Positions 54,010 to 61,647 of a DNA stretch of 64,000 nucleotides are shown one piece after another. The notes under the pieces are model-generated. The model did no database searches. It saw only the letters and a program-made list of their open reading frames with translations, and had not been told where the DNA came from. The DNA is from Acanthamoeba sp. SK_2022b (lineage: Eukaryota > Discosea > Longamoebia > Acanthamoebidae). The stretch spans positions 62,001 to 126,000 of the forward strand of contig JANDJZ010000046.1 in NCBI GenBank assembly GCA_027943245.1. Direction: 5' to 3'. How positions within the stretch are numbered: the first letter of the stretch is position 1; each line of letters begins with the position of its first letter. Both the position numbers and the translations under genes were made by a program.

Positions 54010-54956
54010 ATCCCCATCAACACTGCCCTTCTCTGAAAGGCCCCTGTAGATAAGCGTCGCGCAACTGTTGTTCAAACAGCTCTCCGCACAACTGTTGCTT
54101 GAAGAGCCGTAGTGTGTGATTGGGCAAGTTAAAAAACAACATTGCAGCGCATTGATTCGCGTTCTGCAGTCGTAACTGGCCAAGTGACCCCCCAGTCACG
54201 TCGTGTCACCCGGAAGGGAACGCCCAGCAAGGGGGAAGTGGCAACGACAGAGGCTTAGCCTCTTGGCTTCCGGATGATCCGAGACTGAGGGCAAGGGTTT
54301 CCCCGCAGCCAAGCACAGAGTCTTTTCTGGGCCGAGTAGAGCAAGCCACCGTGTTTGCCTTTGTTCGTTGACGTTAGCGGATGGGAGCGACAGGCTTCGC
54401 TGTCCCTCAGCTGCGCTGGGTTCCCTGCAAGGAAAGGGCGTGGGGTTGTCGCCCGCACTTGGCGCAGGGCAAGGGGATTGGCGCCGTGTTGGCCACGAGT
54501 CCCACCCGTGCCAGCCGGCCTCCAGAGGCGAGAATGAAGCGAATGCCTGCCCGGCCTAATCAATAGCAAACCGGGAGGAACTGCAACACGACCGCGGCCC
54601 AAACCCAGATTAGCCCGCCAGGAAGGACCCGTGTGGCGCTGATCGCGGCATGCTGCTGGCTGTCATGTCAGCGCCCTTCATGTCAACACGGTCAGAGCGA
54701 CCTTACGCGAACCTCTCGGCCAGTTTATTTTGGGCGACGTCGCGCTGCCATTCGGGAAGGCCCAGGGCGAGCGACATTCCCCGACAGGTCCGCAGACGGC
54801 CAAACCGCAGACCGGGCCCGCTGCGCCCGTGACCCTCTCTCGCCCTGCTCAAACCTCACTTGCACTTGCACGCGAGAGAACGACCGGCCCTCCCCTCAGC
54901 ATCGCATCAACAAGTTCAGACCGTCCAAAAGACGTCGAGCAAGGAGGCGAGAAGGG
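54010..54956. other. Intergenic region
   Basis: I see no defensible gene. The frame of the downstream CBS protein stays open from 54633, but the codon content there (Arg, Pro, Ser, Cys mixture) does not resemble the acidic and basic N-terminus that follows 54957. No structured RNA was recognised. Confidence 0.45.
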
Positions 54957-57900
54957 ATGGAGGCGATGAAGAGACTGTCGAGCATGTCCGCCTTCCACCA
55001 CCACCACGGCAAGAAGGTGGTGGACGACAAGCAGCAGAGCAAGAAGGAAGATGAAAGCGAGACGAGCAGCGAAGAGGAGGAGGAGGACAGGAGCGAAGAA
55101 GAGGAAGGGGAGAGAAAGCAAAAGAAGCTGAGCAAGAGCAAAAGCTTCAAGCTGAAGCTGCTGAAGAAGATGGGGCGAGGAAAGAAGGTGGCCGGCAAGG
55201 AGAGCGCAGGCAAGAATGGGGTGGCGGGCGACAAGCGCCAGATGGAGCGGGAGAGGCGTAAGGACGAGATGATCAAGAGCTACGACAAGAAGGCGCAGCT
55301 GGACGCAGCCACCACCGCCTCATCGTCTCACATCAAGGAGATTCCTCAGACCGTGATGTGCGGGATGAATCTTCCGGGCTACAAGTCACACATCAAGAGG
55401 AGCGCTTCCTCATCATCTCCCGGATCATCATCTGCTGGCAGCGCTGCTAACAACCGTGGACGGCGAGGCGGCGCCGAGGAACGCCGCCAAGTAGCGAACA
55501 GCAACCCGCTTCTGATTAACGATGAAAACGAGCGACGTCGAGCCGAAGCCAAGGAGAGGCATCGCGAGCTATGTAGCCTCGGGGGCGTTCTCGGTCAGAA
55601 AAATCGTTCGCCTTCCCCCTCGTCATCTTCATCCGCGGCCCAACCAAAGATCGAAAACGGCGGAGAAGCGGCCAAAAGAGATGCGAAAAGCGAGAGGCGC
55701 AGCAGCGGCTTCCTTCTCGGCGGCCGCGTGCGCGACCAGTCCACGGCCCGCCAGCCCAGCAAGCAGCAGGCGCCGTGGGTCAAAGGCGAGAGCCAGCCGC
55801 CCGCCGGCTCGGCCAGGTGCTGTGTCGACAGCGGCGACTACGTGGAGCGCGGGGAGGAGGGCATCGACCTCATGGAGCTCCAGCGCCAGTTCCAGCAGGG
55901 CGGCGGCGCCGACGACGACGAGCGGCGCGTGCGCCTGGCCGAGGACCGGATCAAGGGCGCCGCGCGCCTCCCGTGGTGGGGCCTCAACGCGTCGTCGGGC
56001 AAGGAGGGCCGCCGCAAGGAGTGGGAGAGGTTCTTCTCCGGGTTCAAGGTCTGCGAGCTGTGGGAGGACGACGAGGGCAACGACGAAGACTACGACGATG
56101 ACGACGACGAAGAGGATGGGTGCCGCGGCAAGAAGGTGGCCTACCTCACCGAGGAGACGACCGTGAAGGAGGCTCTCGACGTGATGAGCGAGCGCGCCCT
56201 CAACGCGCTCCCGATCTGCCTCAAGGAGGTCGACTCGACCTGCTGCGGCCACGAAGGGGGCAAGGCCAAGGCGGCCGCCGACGGCTCGCACGAGGAGGAC
56301 GAGGTGCGCGAGCGCGCACTGCGCCACCTGCGCAAGTGGCGCAAGGCGGAGCTGGTGCGCGAGCGCGAGCGGAAGCAGCGGAAGCAGCGCGGCAAGACCG
56401 TGCTCGGGTGGATCGACCTGCGCGACCTCCTCACCTTTGCCGTGTTCAAATTCCCGCGGCCGCCATCGGCCGACATCGGGATCGACGAGGTGCGGCGGCA
56501 GGGCATGGAGTTCACGCAGCACAAGATTCGGGAGCTGGTCAACATCTACGGCATGAACGGCGGGCACGTGGTGAACGAGGAGGGCACGGGCGGGCAGGGC
56601 CGGCACCGCATCGCGGCCAACGACCGCATGCCCGCCGTGTTCCGCATGCTGCGCAGCGAGAAGGGCCTCCGCGTGCTGCCGGTCTACGACCAGAGCCAGC
56701 TCCCGCCGGAGAGCCGCTGCCTCGTGCGGGTGCTGGACACCAACGCCGTGGTCAAGTGGCTCCACCGCGTGGTCCAGGACAACCGCTCGCGCTCCCAGTT
56801 CGTGCGCGAGCTGGCCAACCGGCAGGTGCGGCACTGGGGCGCGTTCGCCGACGCGATCCTGGGCAAGGAGCTCATCTACTTCGAGACCGAGGAGATGATC
56901 AACAACTTTGACCACTTTCGGGCCAGGAAGCGCGAGCGGCGGATGAGCAAGCTCATCATCCCGTTCGGAAGCACCGACGGCGGCAGCACCGTCGAGGTGA
57001 CCAAGAAGAGCTGCAAGACCCCGTCCCCGCCGCCCACGGCCAGCGACCACCCGAAGGAGAAGATCGATCTCAACAAGCACCTCTTCACCATCTCGGCGGA
57101 CCGCAGCGTCATCGACGCCTTCAAGATCATCTACAACTACAAGGTGTCGGCGCTGGGCGTCCTCGAGAAGAAGGGCAAGGAGAGGAACGTGGACGACGAG
57201 AGCAGCAGCGACGATGAAGATGACGATGACGACGAGACCGAAGAAGATGATGAGGACAGCGATTCGTCTTCGTCATCGTCGTCTTCGTCGGGCGAAGACG
57301 AGGAGCAGACCAAGTTGCAGCGAAAGAAGAAGGAGCGGGACCAGGAGAAGGCCAGGGGGCCCAGCCTCAAGGAGGCCAAGGCCATGGTCGAAGCGGCGCG
57401 CGACAGTTCCAGCGAGGACGAGAGCAGCAGCGACGACAGCGAGACAGAATCGGAGGAGGAGGAGGAGGAGGAGGCCAAGGCGAGCGACATGACGACGGCC
57501 ACCAACGGCCTGGACCACTCGAACCAGCTCATCGACAACCCGCCGCCCAAGCGGACAGCCGACTCGCAGACGCTGTCGTCAGGGTCGCACGCCAAGCCCA
57601 GGCGATCCCAGAGCGACCCGCTGGGCCTGAGCTCGTCGAAGAAGGCCAACGCGCACGACGCCTCGGACACGGCCAAGACGAGGTCGGAGGCCAAGGAGCG
57701 GAAGCCGCTGTGGTCGCGATCGAAGAAGCCGACGGCGAGGATCACCCGCGAGGAGATGGTGGTGCGGGCGGCGCAGGACGGGAAGCTGATCTCGCACCTG
57801 AGCTCGAGCGACCTCAAGCACTTTGAGCCCTACGCGATGATGCGATGCCTCCACATGTCGATCAAGGAGTACCTCTCCTGCTTCAAGGAGAAGAAGCCCC

Positions 57901-58130
57901 TCGTCACCTGCCGCCGCGACACCACCCTCCTGCAGCTGCTCGAGAAGATGGCGCGCGAGGAGGTCAACCGGGTGTGGCTCCTCGCCGACGAGGACGACGA
58001 CGAGGACGACAACGGACACGACCGGAAGGCGAAGCAGCAGGGCTCCGAGGCCAAGCCCAAGGACAACGGCGGACGGCCCATCGGCATGATCTCCCTCGCC
58101 GACGTGATCGCCGAAGTCACTCGCCTGTAG
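54957..58130 (+). CDS. Four-CBS-domain protein with long disordered inserts
   Basis: This single-exon gene encodes 1057 residues, a rarity among its intron-rich neighbours. Four CBS motifs are seen: residues about 393-495 (VAYLTEETTVKEALDVMSER, then TVLGWIDLRDLLTFAVF), 545-605 (RIAANDRMPAVFRMLRSEKG), 705-740 (HLFTISADRSVIDAFKIIYN) and 980-1057 (LVTCRRDTTLLQLLEKMARE, GRPIGMISLADVIAEVTRL). The third CBS is split from the rest by an acidic, Ser-rich insert of about 200 residues. Two Bateman pairs recall the AMPK gamma subunit and suggest binding of adenine nucleotides, which is inference. The N-terminal 390 residues are low complexity with His, Glu/Asp and Lys runs. The start at 54957 was picked as the first Met of the acidic-basic region. 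Confidence 0.78.
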   Translation: MEAMKRLSSMSAFHHHHGKKVVDDKQQSKKEDESETSSEEEEEDRSEEEEGERKQKKLSKSKSFKLKLLKKMGRGKKVAGKESAGKNGVAGDKRQMERERRKDEMIKSYDKKAQLDAATTASSSHIKEIPQTVMCGMNLPGYKSHIKRSASSSSPGSSSAGSAANNRGRRGGAEERRQVANSNPLLINDENERRRAEAKERHRELCSLGGVLGQKNRSPSPSSSSSAAQPKIENGGEAAKRDAKSERRSSGFLLGGRVRDQSTARQPSKQQAPWVKGESQPPAGSARCCVDSGDYVERGEEGIDLMELQRQFQQGGGADDDERRVRLAEDRIKGAARLPWWGLNASSGKEGRRKEWERFFSGFKVCELWEDDEGNDEDYDDDDDEEDGCRGKKVAYLTEETTVKEALDVMSERALNALPICLKEVDSTCCGHEGGKAKAAADGSHEEDEVRERALRHLRKWRKAELVRERERKQRKQRGKTVLGWIDLRDLLTFAVFKFPRPPSADIGIDEVRRQGMEFTQHKIRELVNIYGMNGGHVVNEEGTGGQGRHRIAANDRMPAVFRMLRSEKGLRVLPVYDQSQLPPESRCLVRVLDTNAVVKWLHRVVQDNRSRSQFVRELANRQVRHWGAFADAILGKELIYFETEEMINNFDHFRARKRERRMSKLIIPFGSTDGGSTVEVTKKSCKTPSPPPTASDHPKEKIDLNKHLFTISADRSVIDAFKIIYNYKVSALGVLEKKGKERNVDDESSSDDEDDDDDETEEDDEDSDSSSSSSSSSGEDEEQTKLQRKKKERDQEKARGPSLKEAKAMVEAARDSSSEDESSSDDSETESEEEEEEEAKASDMTTATNGLDHSNQLIDNPPPKRTADSQTLSSGSHAKPRRSQSDPLGLSSSKKANAHDASDTAKTRSEAKERKPLWSRSKKPTARITREEMVVRAAQDGKLISHLSSSDLKHFEPYAMMRCLHMSIKEYLSCFKEKKPLVTCRRDTTLLQLLEKMAREEVNRVWLLADEDDDEDDNGHDRKAKQQGSEAKPKDNGGRPIGMISLADVIAEVTRL

Positions 58131-58506
58131 CCCCTGCAGTTGTTTTGTGTGACACGATCAGTGTTAGAACGGTGACCTTATGTTGGCGCTGCCAGCAATC
58201 GCACAAGGCGGGCCAACCGCGCACTCCTGGGGGGAGGGAATATGGTGGCGGACCCACAAAGTTTGTCCGCGCTTCACGCAAGCGATTGGGTCAATCACCG
58301 CGTTGTCGGCGATTGGGCCCGGGGAAAAGTAACAAAAGCGGCCAAACGGCCCGAGCGTCACAAGAAACCAAGACAAGGAAGGATGGAACCTGACCGCCTC
58401 CTGTGCACCGATGTACATGCCCATAACGCCTAATCAATCGTTTGCATTTTCGGTCACGATTTACTAGAAAGATTCTTAATCTGCGACTTTACCGTGGGTG
58501 GGATCT
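58131..58506. other. Intergenic region upstream of the selenoprotein gene
   Basis: No gene is apparent. An upstream exon of the DEP-GPX gene cannot be excluded, because its first DEP domain begins within ten residues of the chosen start. Confidence 0.4.
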
Positions 58507-60580
58507 ATGAAGGTCGGTGTACTGGCAGAGCGGGCGAGGGACCCCGAGAAGGGGGTGTCGGTCCAGGACCGGCGCCACCTCTTCCGTACCTACCCCAAGA
58601 CCTTTGTGGGTACTGTTTTCCTGTGGCCTTTTTCATACACGCCCGTGCCGAGAGCCTCTCCCTCTGCATCTTTCGTAGCCACGCTCACCGCTGGCTACAA
58701 AAACCTGTGCAGGCTCAGAGATGGTCGATTGGGTGTACAAGAACGTTGTGGGCCTGCGGTTACGCAGCCAAGCCGTCGAGGTCTGTCAGCAGCTCATGGA
58801 CACGGTGCGGAGCCTCCTCACCCCTTCCACCCTTCCTCCCCCCACGCGCTTTCTCGCGATGGTGCGGCGATTGGTGTCATGTTCGATCGACTCACGCTGC
58901 TTGTCGTGCTTCTTGTGGGGCTGATCGGTGGGTGGCCCAGGGGCTCTTCCGCCCAGTTAGTCGACGCAGGCTGGGGAAGCCCTTCTACGATGCGTCTGTC
59001 CTGTACCGCTTCACTGTACGCACGCAACACACGCACAGACAACCGTGTGCGCACATGTAGGTGGCTCTCTCTGATAGGCGGTCGTCCCATCACCTACCAG
59101 GTGGACTTCTCTGGAGGCGAGTGTGACGACGACGAGGACGACAGCGACATTCTCGGAGAGAACAACAAGATTTCGTCAGACCAGGTGAGTGAACGATTGA
59201 AGCGCTCATGTCCAGCTGAGCTTCCTCCCGGAGAGCCTGACTTGACCTGACCCGATCTTTGCTCGGGCCTCGTGGACTGCAGCTCGACGACATCCTCGTG
59301 GCGTTCATCAGCGGCGTCGAAATCAAGAAGAGGCGACACTTCTTGCGCTCCTACGACAACTGCTTCGTCGGTCCGTAATGGAAGCTGTGCTGTCTTGCCA
59401 GCATTTGGTCGGCCACCGCCCGCATGTGACTGACCGTGGCTTGCGCAACCGCGACGACAGGCTCCGAGGCCACGGACTGGATCGTGGACAAGTTCAACGT
59501 CTCTCGCGTGCAAGCTGTCGAACTGGGCCAAAAGATGTTGAGCATGGTGCGAACAACGTCATTGAGTCGCTTTGTCGGTCCTGTGAGGTCCCTCAAAAAG
59601 TGGCGCGACTCACGCTTTTACCCTAACATCTTCCAGGGCTTCTTCGAGCACGTCAGCGACCAGAACAAGCCGTTTGAGGACGCCAACGAGTTCTACCGCT
59701 TCGTGGTAGGCGCGAACCTCATTGAGTGTGGCTGTCTCCGAGCCTCATAACAAACTCTCTCGTTTCCCTTTTCTTTACAGGACACCCAAGCGACAGGACC
59801 GCAAATCACCGATAAGACCACCCTCTACGACTTCAACGCTCTCGACATCGATAAGAACCCGGTGTCGCTCAGCGAGTACGCCGGTCGAGTGGTGCTGGTC
59901 GTCAACGTAGCGTCGTTCTGAGGTTTGACCCCGAAGAACTACACGCAGCTCCAAGAGGTGCGCCATCGCCACGTCTCTCAGGCGATCCTGTGCCTGTGTC
60001 AAGAAGAGAGAGAGATATATGCGCTCATCGCCTATCTCTTCGTCGAACTTAGTTGGTGGAGACTCACGGAGCATCGGGATTCACCGTTCTGGGTTTCCCG
60101 TGCAATCAATTCGGCAAGTACGGCGTCTTCCTCCTCTCAGCGCATGTGCGTGGCTCTGATATTCGCGAGAGACTCACCGTTACCACCGCTGTCTGGGTGG
60201 GCTGTCTGCAGGCAAGAGCCGGGCACAAACGACGAGATAAAGGAGTTCGTCAAGAAGTTCAACGTCACCTTCCCCCTGTTCGACAAGGTCAACGTAAACG
60301 GACCAAACGCCCACCCGCTCTTCAAGTGGCTCAAGGACGAGTGCGTTCTCCCTCTCCTCCCCCCCCCCCGTCCAAGGCAATCTTCGCCGTGTAGTGGCCT
60401 GATCGGCCACGGCGTGTTGGCAGGCTTCCTGGATCCCTGGGTATCAAGGGCGTGAAGTGGAACTTCACCAAGTTCTTGATCAACAAGCAGGGAAAGCCCG
60501 TCCAGCGCTACGGCCCGCCGACCGACCCCAAGTCCATCGAGAAGGACATCCTCACTCTCATGGAGCAGGATTCCCTCTAG
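58507..60580 (+). CDS. DEP-DEP-glutathione peroxidase selenoprotein
   Basis: Eleven exons (58507-58609, 58713-58804, 58941-59015, 59101-59184, 59283-59370, 59461-59546, 59637-59705, 59781-59957, 60053-60117, 60212-60340, 60424-60580) total 1125 nt, or 374 residues with Sec. DEP1 includes [20 protein letters not shown] and [14 protein letters not shown]2 includes [20 protein letters not shown] and [14 protein letters not shown]4-type domain follows: [30 protein letters not shown], then in-frame TGA at 59919-59921 (residue 246) in the Sec position, [28 protein letters not shown] and [14 protein letters not shown]. Gln and Trp of the catalytic tetrad are present. The GPX exon has no Met of its own before the active site, supporting a true fusion. 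GPX4 enzymes reduce phospholipid hydroperoxides; DEP domains tether proteins to membranes. Confidence 0.9.
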
Positions 60581-61008
60581 CGAGGCTTTTCATGGGGTTT
60601 CAAGCCAGACTCGGAAGCGGATGGCCAGCGGGCCGTCGACGGTGATCGCGATGGACAGAACGCGTAGAAGAAGAGTGCATGCGAATGAAGGCGCCACCGG
60701 AAAACACAGCCCTGGTTGCTCGTGTCGGTAGCGCCTGATAAGATACGGAGCCGATTCCAACCGTCGCTCCTTGCGCTCCTTCTCCCGGACTGCCTCTCGT
60801 GACCTCTCGCCGGCTTGTTCCTCCGCGCTTGAGGGGCAAAACAAGAACAAAGTTCATTTTTCGATTGGTTGACACGTTATTTTTATTGCTTCAGCGCCGG
60901 GCAGCTTTTCACTGTAGCGGGCCCGCAAGCTTTTCTGTCGAAACCTCCCCCACCGCTTGCATCATAATCAAGAGCTGCCGGTGTGCCGCCAGTAGCACAG
61001 AACAACAG
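60581..61008. other. 3' UTR with SECIS and upstream region of the Hcp-like gene
   Basis: Apart from the SECIS element no gene is visible; the frame of the Hcp-like protein is open upstream of 61009 but shows no family similarity there. Confidence 0.5.
60685..60739 (+). promoter_or_regulatory. SECIS element in the 3' UTR of the DEP-GPX gene
   Basis: ATGA at 60685-60688 and TGAT at 60736-60739 form the non-Watson-Crick quartet. Between them GGCGC/GCGCC and ACCG/CGGT pair around one mismatch. AAAA at 60701-60704 opens the apical loop 12 nt after the ATGA, which is the expected spacing, and CAGCC/GGTTG can form an apical mini-stem (form II). It lies 105 nt after the TAG at 60578-60580. Confidence 0.85.
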
Positions 61009-61647
61009 ATGGCCGACCAGGATAACGAGACCAAATCTGCGGCAGACCTCTACCTCATGCTCGAAGGCGTCAAGGGCCCGGTAACTGAACCTGAGCGTGA
61101 GGGCTGGATCAAGTGCCTGGCGTACGATTGGGGCGTAAGGTTTGCCGTTCACGATGCTGAGTGCAAGAAGGAAGAAGAGAAGGCCGCCGCCAGGGCAGCG
61201 GAGAGGGGCGAGAACGAAGAGGCTTGGGAGCGCAAGGTCAGGCTGAGGGTTGAGTGCTCGGCCCCCTCCGTCAGCGAGCTCACCCTCCTCAAAGAGACTG
61301 ACTCTTCTTCGCCTCTGCTCTTCTACCACTCGGTCCTCTGCAAACCCGTCCGTCGGGCGGTTGTCGAGATCGTTCGGCGCTCGGACAATACGACTCTCCG
61401 CTTCGAGCTGGAAGACGTCTGGGTCTCCAGCTTCTCGTTTTCCACGCGCGACAGCGCCGGCTCGGGCAGGCCTGTTGAGTCACTGTCGCTCTACTTCCAG
61501 CACGTGACCTACGGTGTGCGGAATGGGTCCGGCAAGGCATCCACCACGACAGGATGGGACCGCGCCAACGAAGCGGCGACTCTCGCCGGTGAATCGGTAG
61601 GGCCCTTCTGGGAAGACGACACCGAGCCGGAACAGGACATGTCGTGA
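61009..61647 (+). CDS. Hcp-like (T6SS tube protein fold, PF05638-type) protein
   Basis: This single exon encodes 212 residues. The pattern is that of the Hcp family: DLYLMLEGVKGPVTEPEREG, WIKCLAYDWGVRF, a Lys/Glu-rich insert (KKEEEKAAARAAERGENEE), KPVRRAVVEIVRR, TLRFELEDVWVSSFSF, and GRPVESLSLYFQHVTYGV. In bacteria Hcp hexamers stack into the tube of the type VI secretion system and are also secreted. The insert and a Pro/Glu/Asp-rich tail make it longer than bacterial Hcp (about 160-170 residues). There is no signal peptide. GC content and codon use fit the host. No other T6SS gene is near. It may be an acquired bacterial gene now used for something else, or an Hcp-fold protein with an older eukaryotic history. 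Confidence 0.75.
   Translation: MADQDNETKSAADLYLMLEGVKGPVTEPEREGWIKCLAYDWGVRFAVHDAECKKEEEKAAARAAERGENEEAWERKVRLRVECSAPSVSELTLLKETDSSSPLLFYHSVLCKPVRRAVVEIVRRSDNTTLRFELEDVWVSSFSFSTRDSAGSGRPVESLSLYFQHVTYGVRNGSGKASTTTGWDRANEAATLAGESVGPFWEDDTEPEQDMS

What the first reader, a model, noticed from the sequence alone, without database searches (positions are those of the whole stretch)
58507..60739. Tandem DEP domains fused to a selenocysteine glutathione peroxidase
Eleven exons keep one frame from two complete DEP domains into a GPX4-type domain with UGA at the active site, and a SECIS-like hairpin with the right spacing lies 105 nt past the TAG. DEP domains bind membranes and GPCR/Ras-type regulators, so the fusion could target a lipid-hydroperoxide reductase to a signalling membrane. 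I know of no described DEP-GPX protein. Annotation pipelines would cut the gene at the UGA or split it in two.
Basis: partly seen in the sequence, partly recalled or inferred. Interest (0 to 1): 0.88.

Follow-up and report, generated by a model that had tools for sequence, protein, structure and literature searches.

The report
Membrane-anchored selenium peroxidase fusion in amoeba
An Acanthamoeba-type amoeba gene appears to encode one protein that joins two membrane- or partner-binding DEP domains to a selenium-dependent enzyme of the kind that repairs oxidised membrane lipids, an arrangement we did not find described.

Summary
Eleven exons at 58507-60580, with GT..AG introns, give a 374-residue frame: two DEP domains (Pfam 3.8e-45) and a GPX4-type domain (1.1e-41) with UGA at the catalytic position, residue 246. 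The doubtful place is the join at intron 7. Between an in-frame TAA in that intron (59748) and the UGA (59919) there is no ATG; the only near-cognate codons (GTG/CTG, from 59862) lie inside the conserved GPX core. So a separate GPX would need an unseen 5' exon. The hairpin at 60685-60738 is very probably a real SECIS. It shares core and spacing with SECIS elements beside two other UGA genes of this assembly (TrxR-L, a DsbA-like gene); a covariance model built from those two alone finds it as its only match in the window (E 0.0013). The domain has the GPX4 catalytic residues and no resolving cysteine. Most likely the DEP pair, whose basic loops resemble EPAC1's, docks a glutathione-type phospholipid-hydroperoxide reductase on anionic membranes; Sec insertion, substrate and docking are inferred. 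RNA data, species comparison and a structure model could not be obtained. It is a new domain architecture of known parts.

The parts
58507..58609 (+). exon 1: start ATG and first part of DEP1 (with basic segment [12 protein letters not shown])
   Evidence: first ATG of its frame, whose upstream stop ends at 58479
58713..58804 (+). exon 2: DEP1
   Evidence: DEP match C624:120700-120801 (26.2 bits, below cut-off alone)
58941..59015 (+). exon 3: end of DEP1
   Evidence: aligned to DEPTOR and P-Rex1
59101..59184 (+). exon 4: acidic inter-DEP linker ([12 protein letters not shown])
   Evidence: linker 93-128 pI 4.05
59283..59370 (+). exon 5: start of DEP2 (with basic segment [12 protein letters not shown])
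59461..59546 (+). exon 6: DEP2; holds the last in-frame ATGs before the GPX domain (M173, M176)
   Evidence: DEP match C624:121448-121543
59637..59705 (+). exon 7: end of DEP2
59706..59780 (+). intron 7 at the DEP-GPX join; in-frame TAA at 59748 if unspliced; acceptor scores above 98.3% of 4497 AG, donor above 68.2% of 3505 GT and lowest of this gene's ten donors
59781..59957 (+). exon 8: short linker and start of GPX domain, including the Sec codon
   Evidence: 1 TGA inside
59919..59921 (+). UGA, read as selenocysteine codon (residue 246, NVASF-U-GLT)
   Evidence: aligns with the catalytic position of GPX4 chains
60053..60117 (+). exon 9: GPX (GFPCNQFG)
60212..60340 (+). exon 10: GPX (KQEPG ... 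KWLKDE), with Gln281
60424..60580 (+). exon 11: GPX C-terminus with Trp335-Asn336; stop TAG 60578-60580
60685..60738 (+). SECIS core: AUGA, 9 of 10 stem pairs, GAAA, stem, UGAU

Best explanation
One spliced nuclear gene of an Acanthamoeba-type amoeba encodes a 42-kDa selenoprotein: DEP1 - acidic linker - DEP2 - 13-residue linker - GPX4-type peroxidase. The UGA at codon 246 is read as selenocysteine through the SECIS in the 3' UTR. The GPX domain works as a 1-Sec, glutathione-dependent reductase of hydroperoxides, phospholipid hydroperoxides included. The tandem DEP domains hold it at anionic (for example phosphatidic-acid-rich) membranes, so that repair acts where the lipids are. Shown from sequence: domains, frame, no ATG of its own for the GPX part in the modelled frame, SECIS, catalytic residues, absence of a resolving Cys. 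Inferred: one mRNA, Sec insertion, use of glutathione, lipid substrate, membrane docking.
For: Model and domains. No in-frame ATG from TAA 59748 to UGA 59919; no CTG, GTG or TTG before exon 8, and four GTG/CTG codons inside exon 8 (residues 227, 236-238) that would cut off the domain's first strand. SECIS: 9 of 10 pairs; 1 such core in 30 Mb random; model from TrxR-L and DsbA SECIS only: 1 match at E up to 10 in 64 kb, both strands, 20.7 bits, E 0.0013, rough calibration. Both training SECIS lie downstream of genes with an in-frame UGA. A tRNA-Sec that I read as eukaryotic is on C500 (72.8 bits, anticodon tca). GPX4: 86 of 151 aligned positions identical to chain 7l8m; U246, Q281, W335, N336 match GPX4's U46, Q81, W136, N137 (human numbers recalled); the only Cys of the domain is C275. 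DEP pair: DEPTOR best score, P-Rex1 in one collinear stretch 19-199. DEP1 (1-92) pI 10.08. [12 protein letters not shown] and [12 protein letters not shown] look, by eye, like EPAC1's polybasic loop RDRKYHLRLYRQ, reported to bind phosphatidic acid or anionic membranes (PMC10338474, passages); DEPTOR's DEP tandem binds phosphatidic acid (PMC8439649, passages). In the same assembly tandem DEP also precedes a protein kinase (C665; Pkinase 22.7 bits in that frame, below cut-off 31.7; later kinase motifs read by eye) and perhaps a RasGAP (C205; 17.5 bits, below cut-off 28.3), so it may be a portable module.
Against: No RNA evidence. Intron 7's donor is the lowest-scoring of the gene's ten. Mechanically, 19 combinations of an ATG and a GT in 59371-59770 could splice in frame to 59781 (chance level not computed), so an alternative 5' exon is not excluded. 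SECIS_1 is below the Rfam cut-off and folding energy is not exceptional. The EPAC1 DEP domain alone does not bind the plasma membrane (PMC10338474), so a DEP pair need not anchor by itself. DEP2 and the GPX domain are not basic (pI 6.10 and 6.66). No fusion was seen in viral or prokaryote collections, which are poor places to look; no eukaryote collection was available.
Confidence: 0.57

Rival explanations
1. Same fusion selenoenzyme, but the DEP pair is a protein dock (GPCR tail, Ras/Rap-type regulator or TOR complex), making the peroxidase a local redox switch of a signalling complex rather than a membrane-repair enzyme.
For: DEP similarity to P-Rex1, DEPTOR, EPAC2 and RGS7; in the same assembly tandem DEP precedes a kinase and perhaps a RasGAP. 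In full-length DEPTOR the DEP tandem does contact the mTOR FAT domain (PMC8439649, passages).
Against: DEPTOR's linker and PDZ, the stronger mTOR contacts, are absent here; [quoted passage not shown] No partner was identified or sought.
Confidence: 0.21
2. Two adjacent genes (a DEP-only protein and a Sec-GPX) wrongly joined across 59706-59780.
For: The join is the only place where homology does not force the frame; intron 7 has an in-frame TAA that could end a DEP protein; its donor is the weakest of ten; in-frame GTG/CTG codons exist in exon 8.
Against: No ATG for GPX before the UGA; the GTG/CTG codons lie inside the conserved core; acceptor at the 98.3rd percentile; only 75 nt would have to hold one gene's end and the next gene's promoter and start.
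Confidence: 0.09
3. The fusion is real but a second isoform exists: an alternative 5' exon or an internal start at M173/M176 gives a GPX without an intact DEP pair.
For: M173 and M176 are the last in-frame methionines before the GPX domain; 19 ATG/GT combinations could splice in frame to 59781; animal GPX4 makes isoforms from alternative first exons (recalled).
Against: None of these exons has support of its own; M176 would leave half a DEP domain.
Confidence: 0.13

Closest known systems
GPX4 (phospholipid hydroperoxide glutathione peroxidase, Sec form)
   Same: Catalytic U/Q/W/N, no resolving Cys, no long insertion relative to GPX4 (gaps of at most 2 residues), 86 of 151 positions identical to chain 7l8m
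   Different: The GPX4 chains matched have no DEP domains; animal isoforms are targeted by short leader peptides (recalled)
DEPTOR / P-Rex1 tandem DEP domains
   Same: Two DEP domains in a row; DEPTOR 85-91 bits over two stretches, P-Rex1 one collinear stretch 19-199
   Different: DEPTOR continues into a long linker and PDZ (PMC8439649, passages); here the partner is a peroxidase
Tandem DEP + protein kinase gene of the same assembly (C665)
   Same: Tandem DEP followed by an enzyme; 41% identity over query residues 9-90
   Different: Kinase instead of peroxidase
Cys-GPX of the same assembly (C598), comparable to the Hyr1-type ACA1_365760 of A. castellanii
   Same: GSHPx domain in several exons
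   Different: Cys at the active site and a Cys in EIQEFC (resolving Cys by position, recalled); none of the 34 DEP matches lies on C598
Selenoprotein fusions in algae (SELENOM-pVHL, SELENOM-ShKT, GST-MSRA)
   Same: A selenoprotein domain fused to another domain (PMC7539508, section 11 read)
   Different: Section 11 describes no GPX fusion, and 'DEP domain' has 0 occurrences in the main text

Membership tests
Sec-GPX, GPX4 type | UGA at the catalytic position with the U/Q/W/N tetrad | tested here: met
   (tetrad numbering recalled)
Sec-GPX, GPX4 type | No resolving Cys (1-Sec, glutathione type), unlike thioredoxin-type GPX | tested here: met
   only Cys in the domain is C275
Sec-GPX, GPX4 type | Lacks the oligomerisation loop of GPX1-3 | tested here: met
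   alignment to 7l8m with gaps of at most 2 residues
Sec-GPX, GPX4 type | Reduces phospholipid hydroperoxides with glutathione | not testable with these tools
   needs an enzyme assay
Eukaryotic selenoprotein gene | SECIS in the 3' UTR with AUGA / AAA / UGA core | tested here: met
   (below Rfam cut-off)
Eukaryotic selenoprotein gene | Sec machinery in the genome | tested here: inconclusive
   tRNA-Sec on C500 (contig origin not tested); SPS exons on C203, below the family cut-off exon by exon. tRNA-Sec and selB on C315 look enterobacterial; no eukaryotic EFSec was settled. PMC8038987 reports tRNA-Sec and SelB for A. castellanii (passages)
Tandem DEP module | Two complete DEP domains | tested here: met
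DEPTOR | C-terminal PDZ and mTOR-binding linker | tested here: not met
   Pfam lists no PDZ; GSHPx follows DEP2 after about 13 residues
Membrane-binding DEP | Direct binding to anionic lipid | not testable with these tools
   basic segments and DEP1 pI 10.08 only

The most novel reading that the evidence does not exclude
The protein is a lipid-peroxide sensor-effector: the DEP pair reads phosphatidic acid or a TOR/GPCR/Ras-type partner, and the Sec-GPX domain clears or senses lipid hydroperoxides at that spot, so that membrane oxidation is wired directly into growth or chemotaxis signalling and ferroptosis-like death control in an amoeba.
Probability: 0.15. Interest if true: 0.85.

Novelty: new variant of a known kind. 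Interest (0 to 1): 0.6.

Why it matters
GPX4-type enzymes are the main brake on lipid peroxidation in animals, and how they find damaged membrane is a live question (recalled). A natural fusion to a signalling-membrane module would be a ready-made experiment on targeting. It would also add a Sec-GPX to Acanthamoeba-type amoebae: the passages of PMC8038987 that I read name only one, Cys-type, GPX for A. castellanii, so ordinary annotation may have missed this gene.

Tried and rejected
Two-gene reading: unlikely, since no ATG precedes the UGA in frame; not excluded. DEPTOR orthology: rejected, no PDZ, and query DEP1/DEP2 align best to DEPTOR DEP2/DEP1. Pseudogene reading: not favoured, since the only in-frame stop is UGA at the catalytic position and a SECIS follows. 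SECIS hit on C260: noise inside a leucine-rich-repeat frame, 7 of 10 pairs. tRNA-Sec on C315: set aside as bacterial (45% of the 3091-base stretch matches E. coli chromosomes at 88.9%; selB on the same contig). Three GPX frames without introns (C339, C1037 twice, two of the three read) look bacterial to me, not tested directly. Splice scores come from only nine other introns of this gene, and intron 8's acceptor scores poorly in them too. Viral contigs: 22 of 22 loci match only from residue 193 on, i.e. GPX without the DEP pair. Prokaryote contigs: 45 stretches matched a pattern, 1 is a relative, GPX piece only. SPS on C203: no strict SECIS core in the 3159 bases held, about 2.1 kb past the last matched exon; whether it has Sec was not read. 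SelW/T-type Rdx: one match, no stop inside. Papers: no DEP-GPX protein in the listings (15 of 844 shown; 0 found; 6 of 59; 8 of 1,097; 0 found); only open-access text is held, and the three papers with all four terms were not opened.

With that, the weak donor and the 19 possible joins, the odds moved: best reading 0.60 to 0.57, two genes 0.07 to 0.09, second isoform 0.11 to 0.13, protein dock 0.22 to 0.21.

Full report
What was checked. The window is C624:62001-126000 of an unnamed 44.9 Mb assembly in 1129 contigs. The assembly holds, exon by exon on C216, a thioredoxin reductase (no match above the family's cut-off as a whole) ending Cys-UGA-Gly-stop with a SECIS core 321 nt further on. This resembles Acanthamoeba castellanii Neff, where the SECIS lies 282-355 nt past the stop and the glycine codon is GGT (PMC8038987, passages). 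Here the distance differs and the codon is GGC, so I infer an Acanthamoeba-type amoeba other than Neff; the species was not determined. The assembly also contains bacterial sequence (C315).

The gene. Eleven exons (58507-60580) join into 1125 nt with 10 of 10 introns GT..AG and one internal stop, UGA. Pfam finds DEP in two stretches (152.1 bits) and GSHPx (141.2 bits). A DNA search of the assembly finds the locus once, and in a protein search no other place matches both parts (26 matches). Introns 1-6 lie inside the stretch that aligns in one piece with P-Rex1 (19-199, weakly in the linker) and introns 8-10 inside the GPX alignment. Intron 7 (59706-59780) is the join between DEP2 and GPX.

The join. 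Without splicing, the frame of exon 8 is open upstream only to a TAA at 59748, and no ATG lies between it and the UGA at 59919; the last methionines before are M173 and M176 in exon 6, the next after the UGA is residue 369. There is no CTG, GTG or TTG before exon 8; inside it are GTG at residues 227, 236 and 237 and CTG at 238, starts there would remove the conserved beginning of the domain. A mechanical count finds 19 ATG/GT combinations in 59371-59770 that could splice in frame to 59781, so an alternative first exon is possible. By a small matrix from the nine other introns, intron 7's acceptor scores above 98.3% of 4497 AG sites and its donor above 68.2% of 3505 GT sites; the donor is the lowest of this gene's ten, the acceptor second highest. 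Upstream, a frame with CBS domains ends at 58130; downstream, an unrelated frame starts at 61009.

Selenocysteine. Rfam's SECIS_1 gives 14.6 bits at 60677-60751, below its cut-off of 35. In the whole assembly it lists three places up to E 10, all below cut-off (24.8, 24.0 and 19.6 bits), and not the window's: one downstream of the thioredoxin reductase, one downstream of a DsbA-like gene with VVSDNV-UGA-PW (DSBA domain in another frame upstream of the SECIS, 27.4 bits), and C260, which I take as noise. The first two and the window share AUGA, one base, a 10-base stem, (U/G)AAA, loop, stem, UGA(C/U), with 9, 10 and 9 of 10 stem pairs. A covariance model built from the two alone finds the window's element as its only match up to E 10 in 64 kb, both strands (20.7 bits, E 0.0013; rough calibration, two training sequences). 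Random sequence with the window's dinucleotides gave 1 core of 9 or more pairs in 30 Mb. A tRNA-Sec that I read as eukaryotic is on C500 (86 nt).

The enzyme. Against chain 7l8m (GPX4), 86 of 151 aligned residues are identical. U246, Q281, W335 and N336 are in place, and the only Cys of the domain is C275. Another GPX of the assembly that is split in exons (C598) has Cys at the active site. The passages of PMC8038987 read name for A. castellanii one GPX, of the Hyr1 type without UGA. For Dictyostelium five selenoproteins are reported, and the passages read (PMC2375036) name no Sec-GPX among them.

The DEP pair. The closest solved structures by sequence are DEPTOR (two stretches, 91 bits) and P-Rex1 (one collinear stretch, 57 bits). 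The basic segments [12 protein letters not shown] and [12 protein letters not shown] correspond by eye to EPAC1's polybasic loop RDRKYHLRLYRQ, implicated in binding phosphatidic acid and anionic membranes, although the EPAC1 DEP domain does not bind the plasma membrane alone (PMC10338474, passages). DEPTOR's DEP tandem binds phosphatidic acid (PMC8439649, passages). Of 34 DEP matches listed in the assembly (a lower bound), 2 are exons of this gene. C665 carries tandem DEP (113.6 bits) followed by a kinase (Pkinase 22.7 bits in that frame, below cut-off 31.7; later motifs read by eye, AGC-like), and C205 two DEP matches followed by a RasGAP match of 17.5 bits, below cut-off.

Mechanism and verdict. 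The best reading is a Sec-dependent, glutathione-type phospholipid-hydroperoxide reductase held at anionic membranes by its DEP pair, with a protein dock as the main rival. Domains, frame, lack of an ATG for the GPX part and SECIS are shown; one mRNA, Sec insertion, substrate and docking are inferred. It is a new architecture of known parts, as far as an open-access library can tell.

Noticed in passing
window 61009-61644 (+): The next frame downstream, 212 residues without introns, matches Pfam T6SS_HCP (65.3 bits, cut-off 23.5), a bacterial secretion-tube family, on an amoeba contig.
   Followed up: no
L041 (C356:56500-62469), minus strand: A further selenoprotein candidate: a DsbA-like gene with UGA before PW and a 10-of-10-pair SECIS core downstream.
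   Followed up: partly
L038 (C665:21500-28500), minus strand: Tandem DEP followed in the same frame by the start of a protein kinase domain.
   Followed up: partly
L043 (C205:167500-173500): Two DEP matches followed by a weak RasGAP match.
   Followed up: partly
G000 contig C315 (L010, L081): Bacterial sequence in the assembly: tRNA-Sec, selB, and a flank 88.9% identical to E. coli chromosomes.
   Followed up: partly
window 54567-58130 (+): Upstream neighbour: a long open frame (1187 aa stop to stop) with CBS domain matches (60.1 bits).
   Followed up: no
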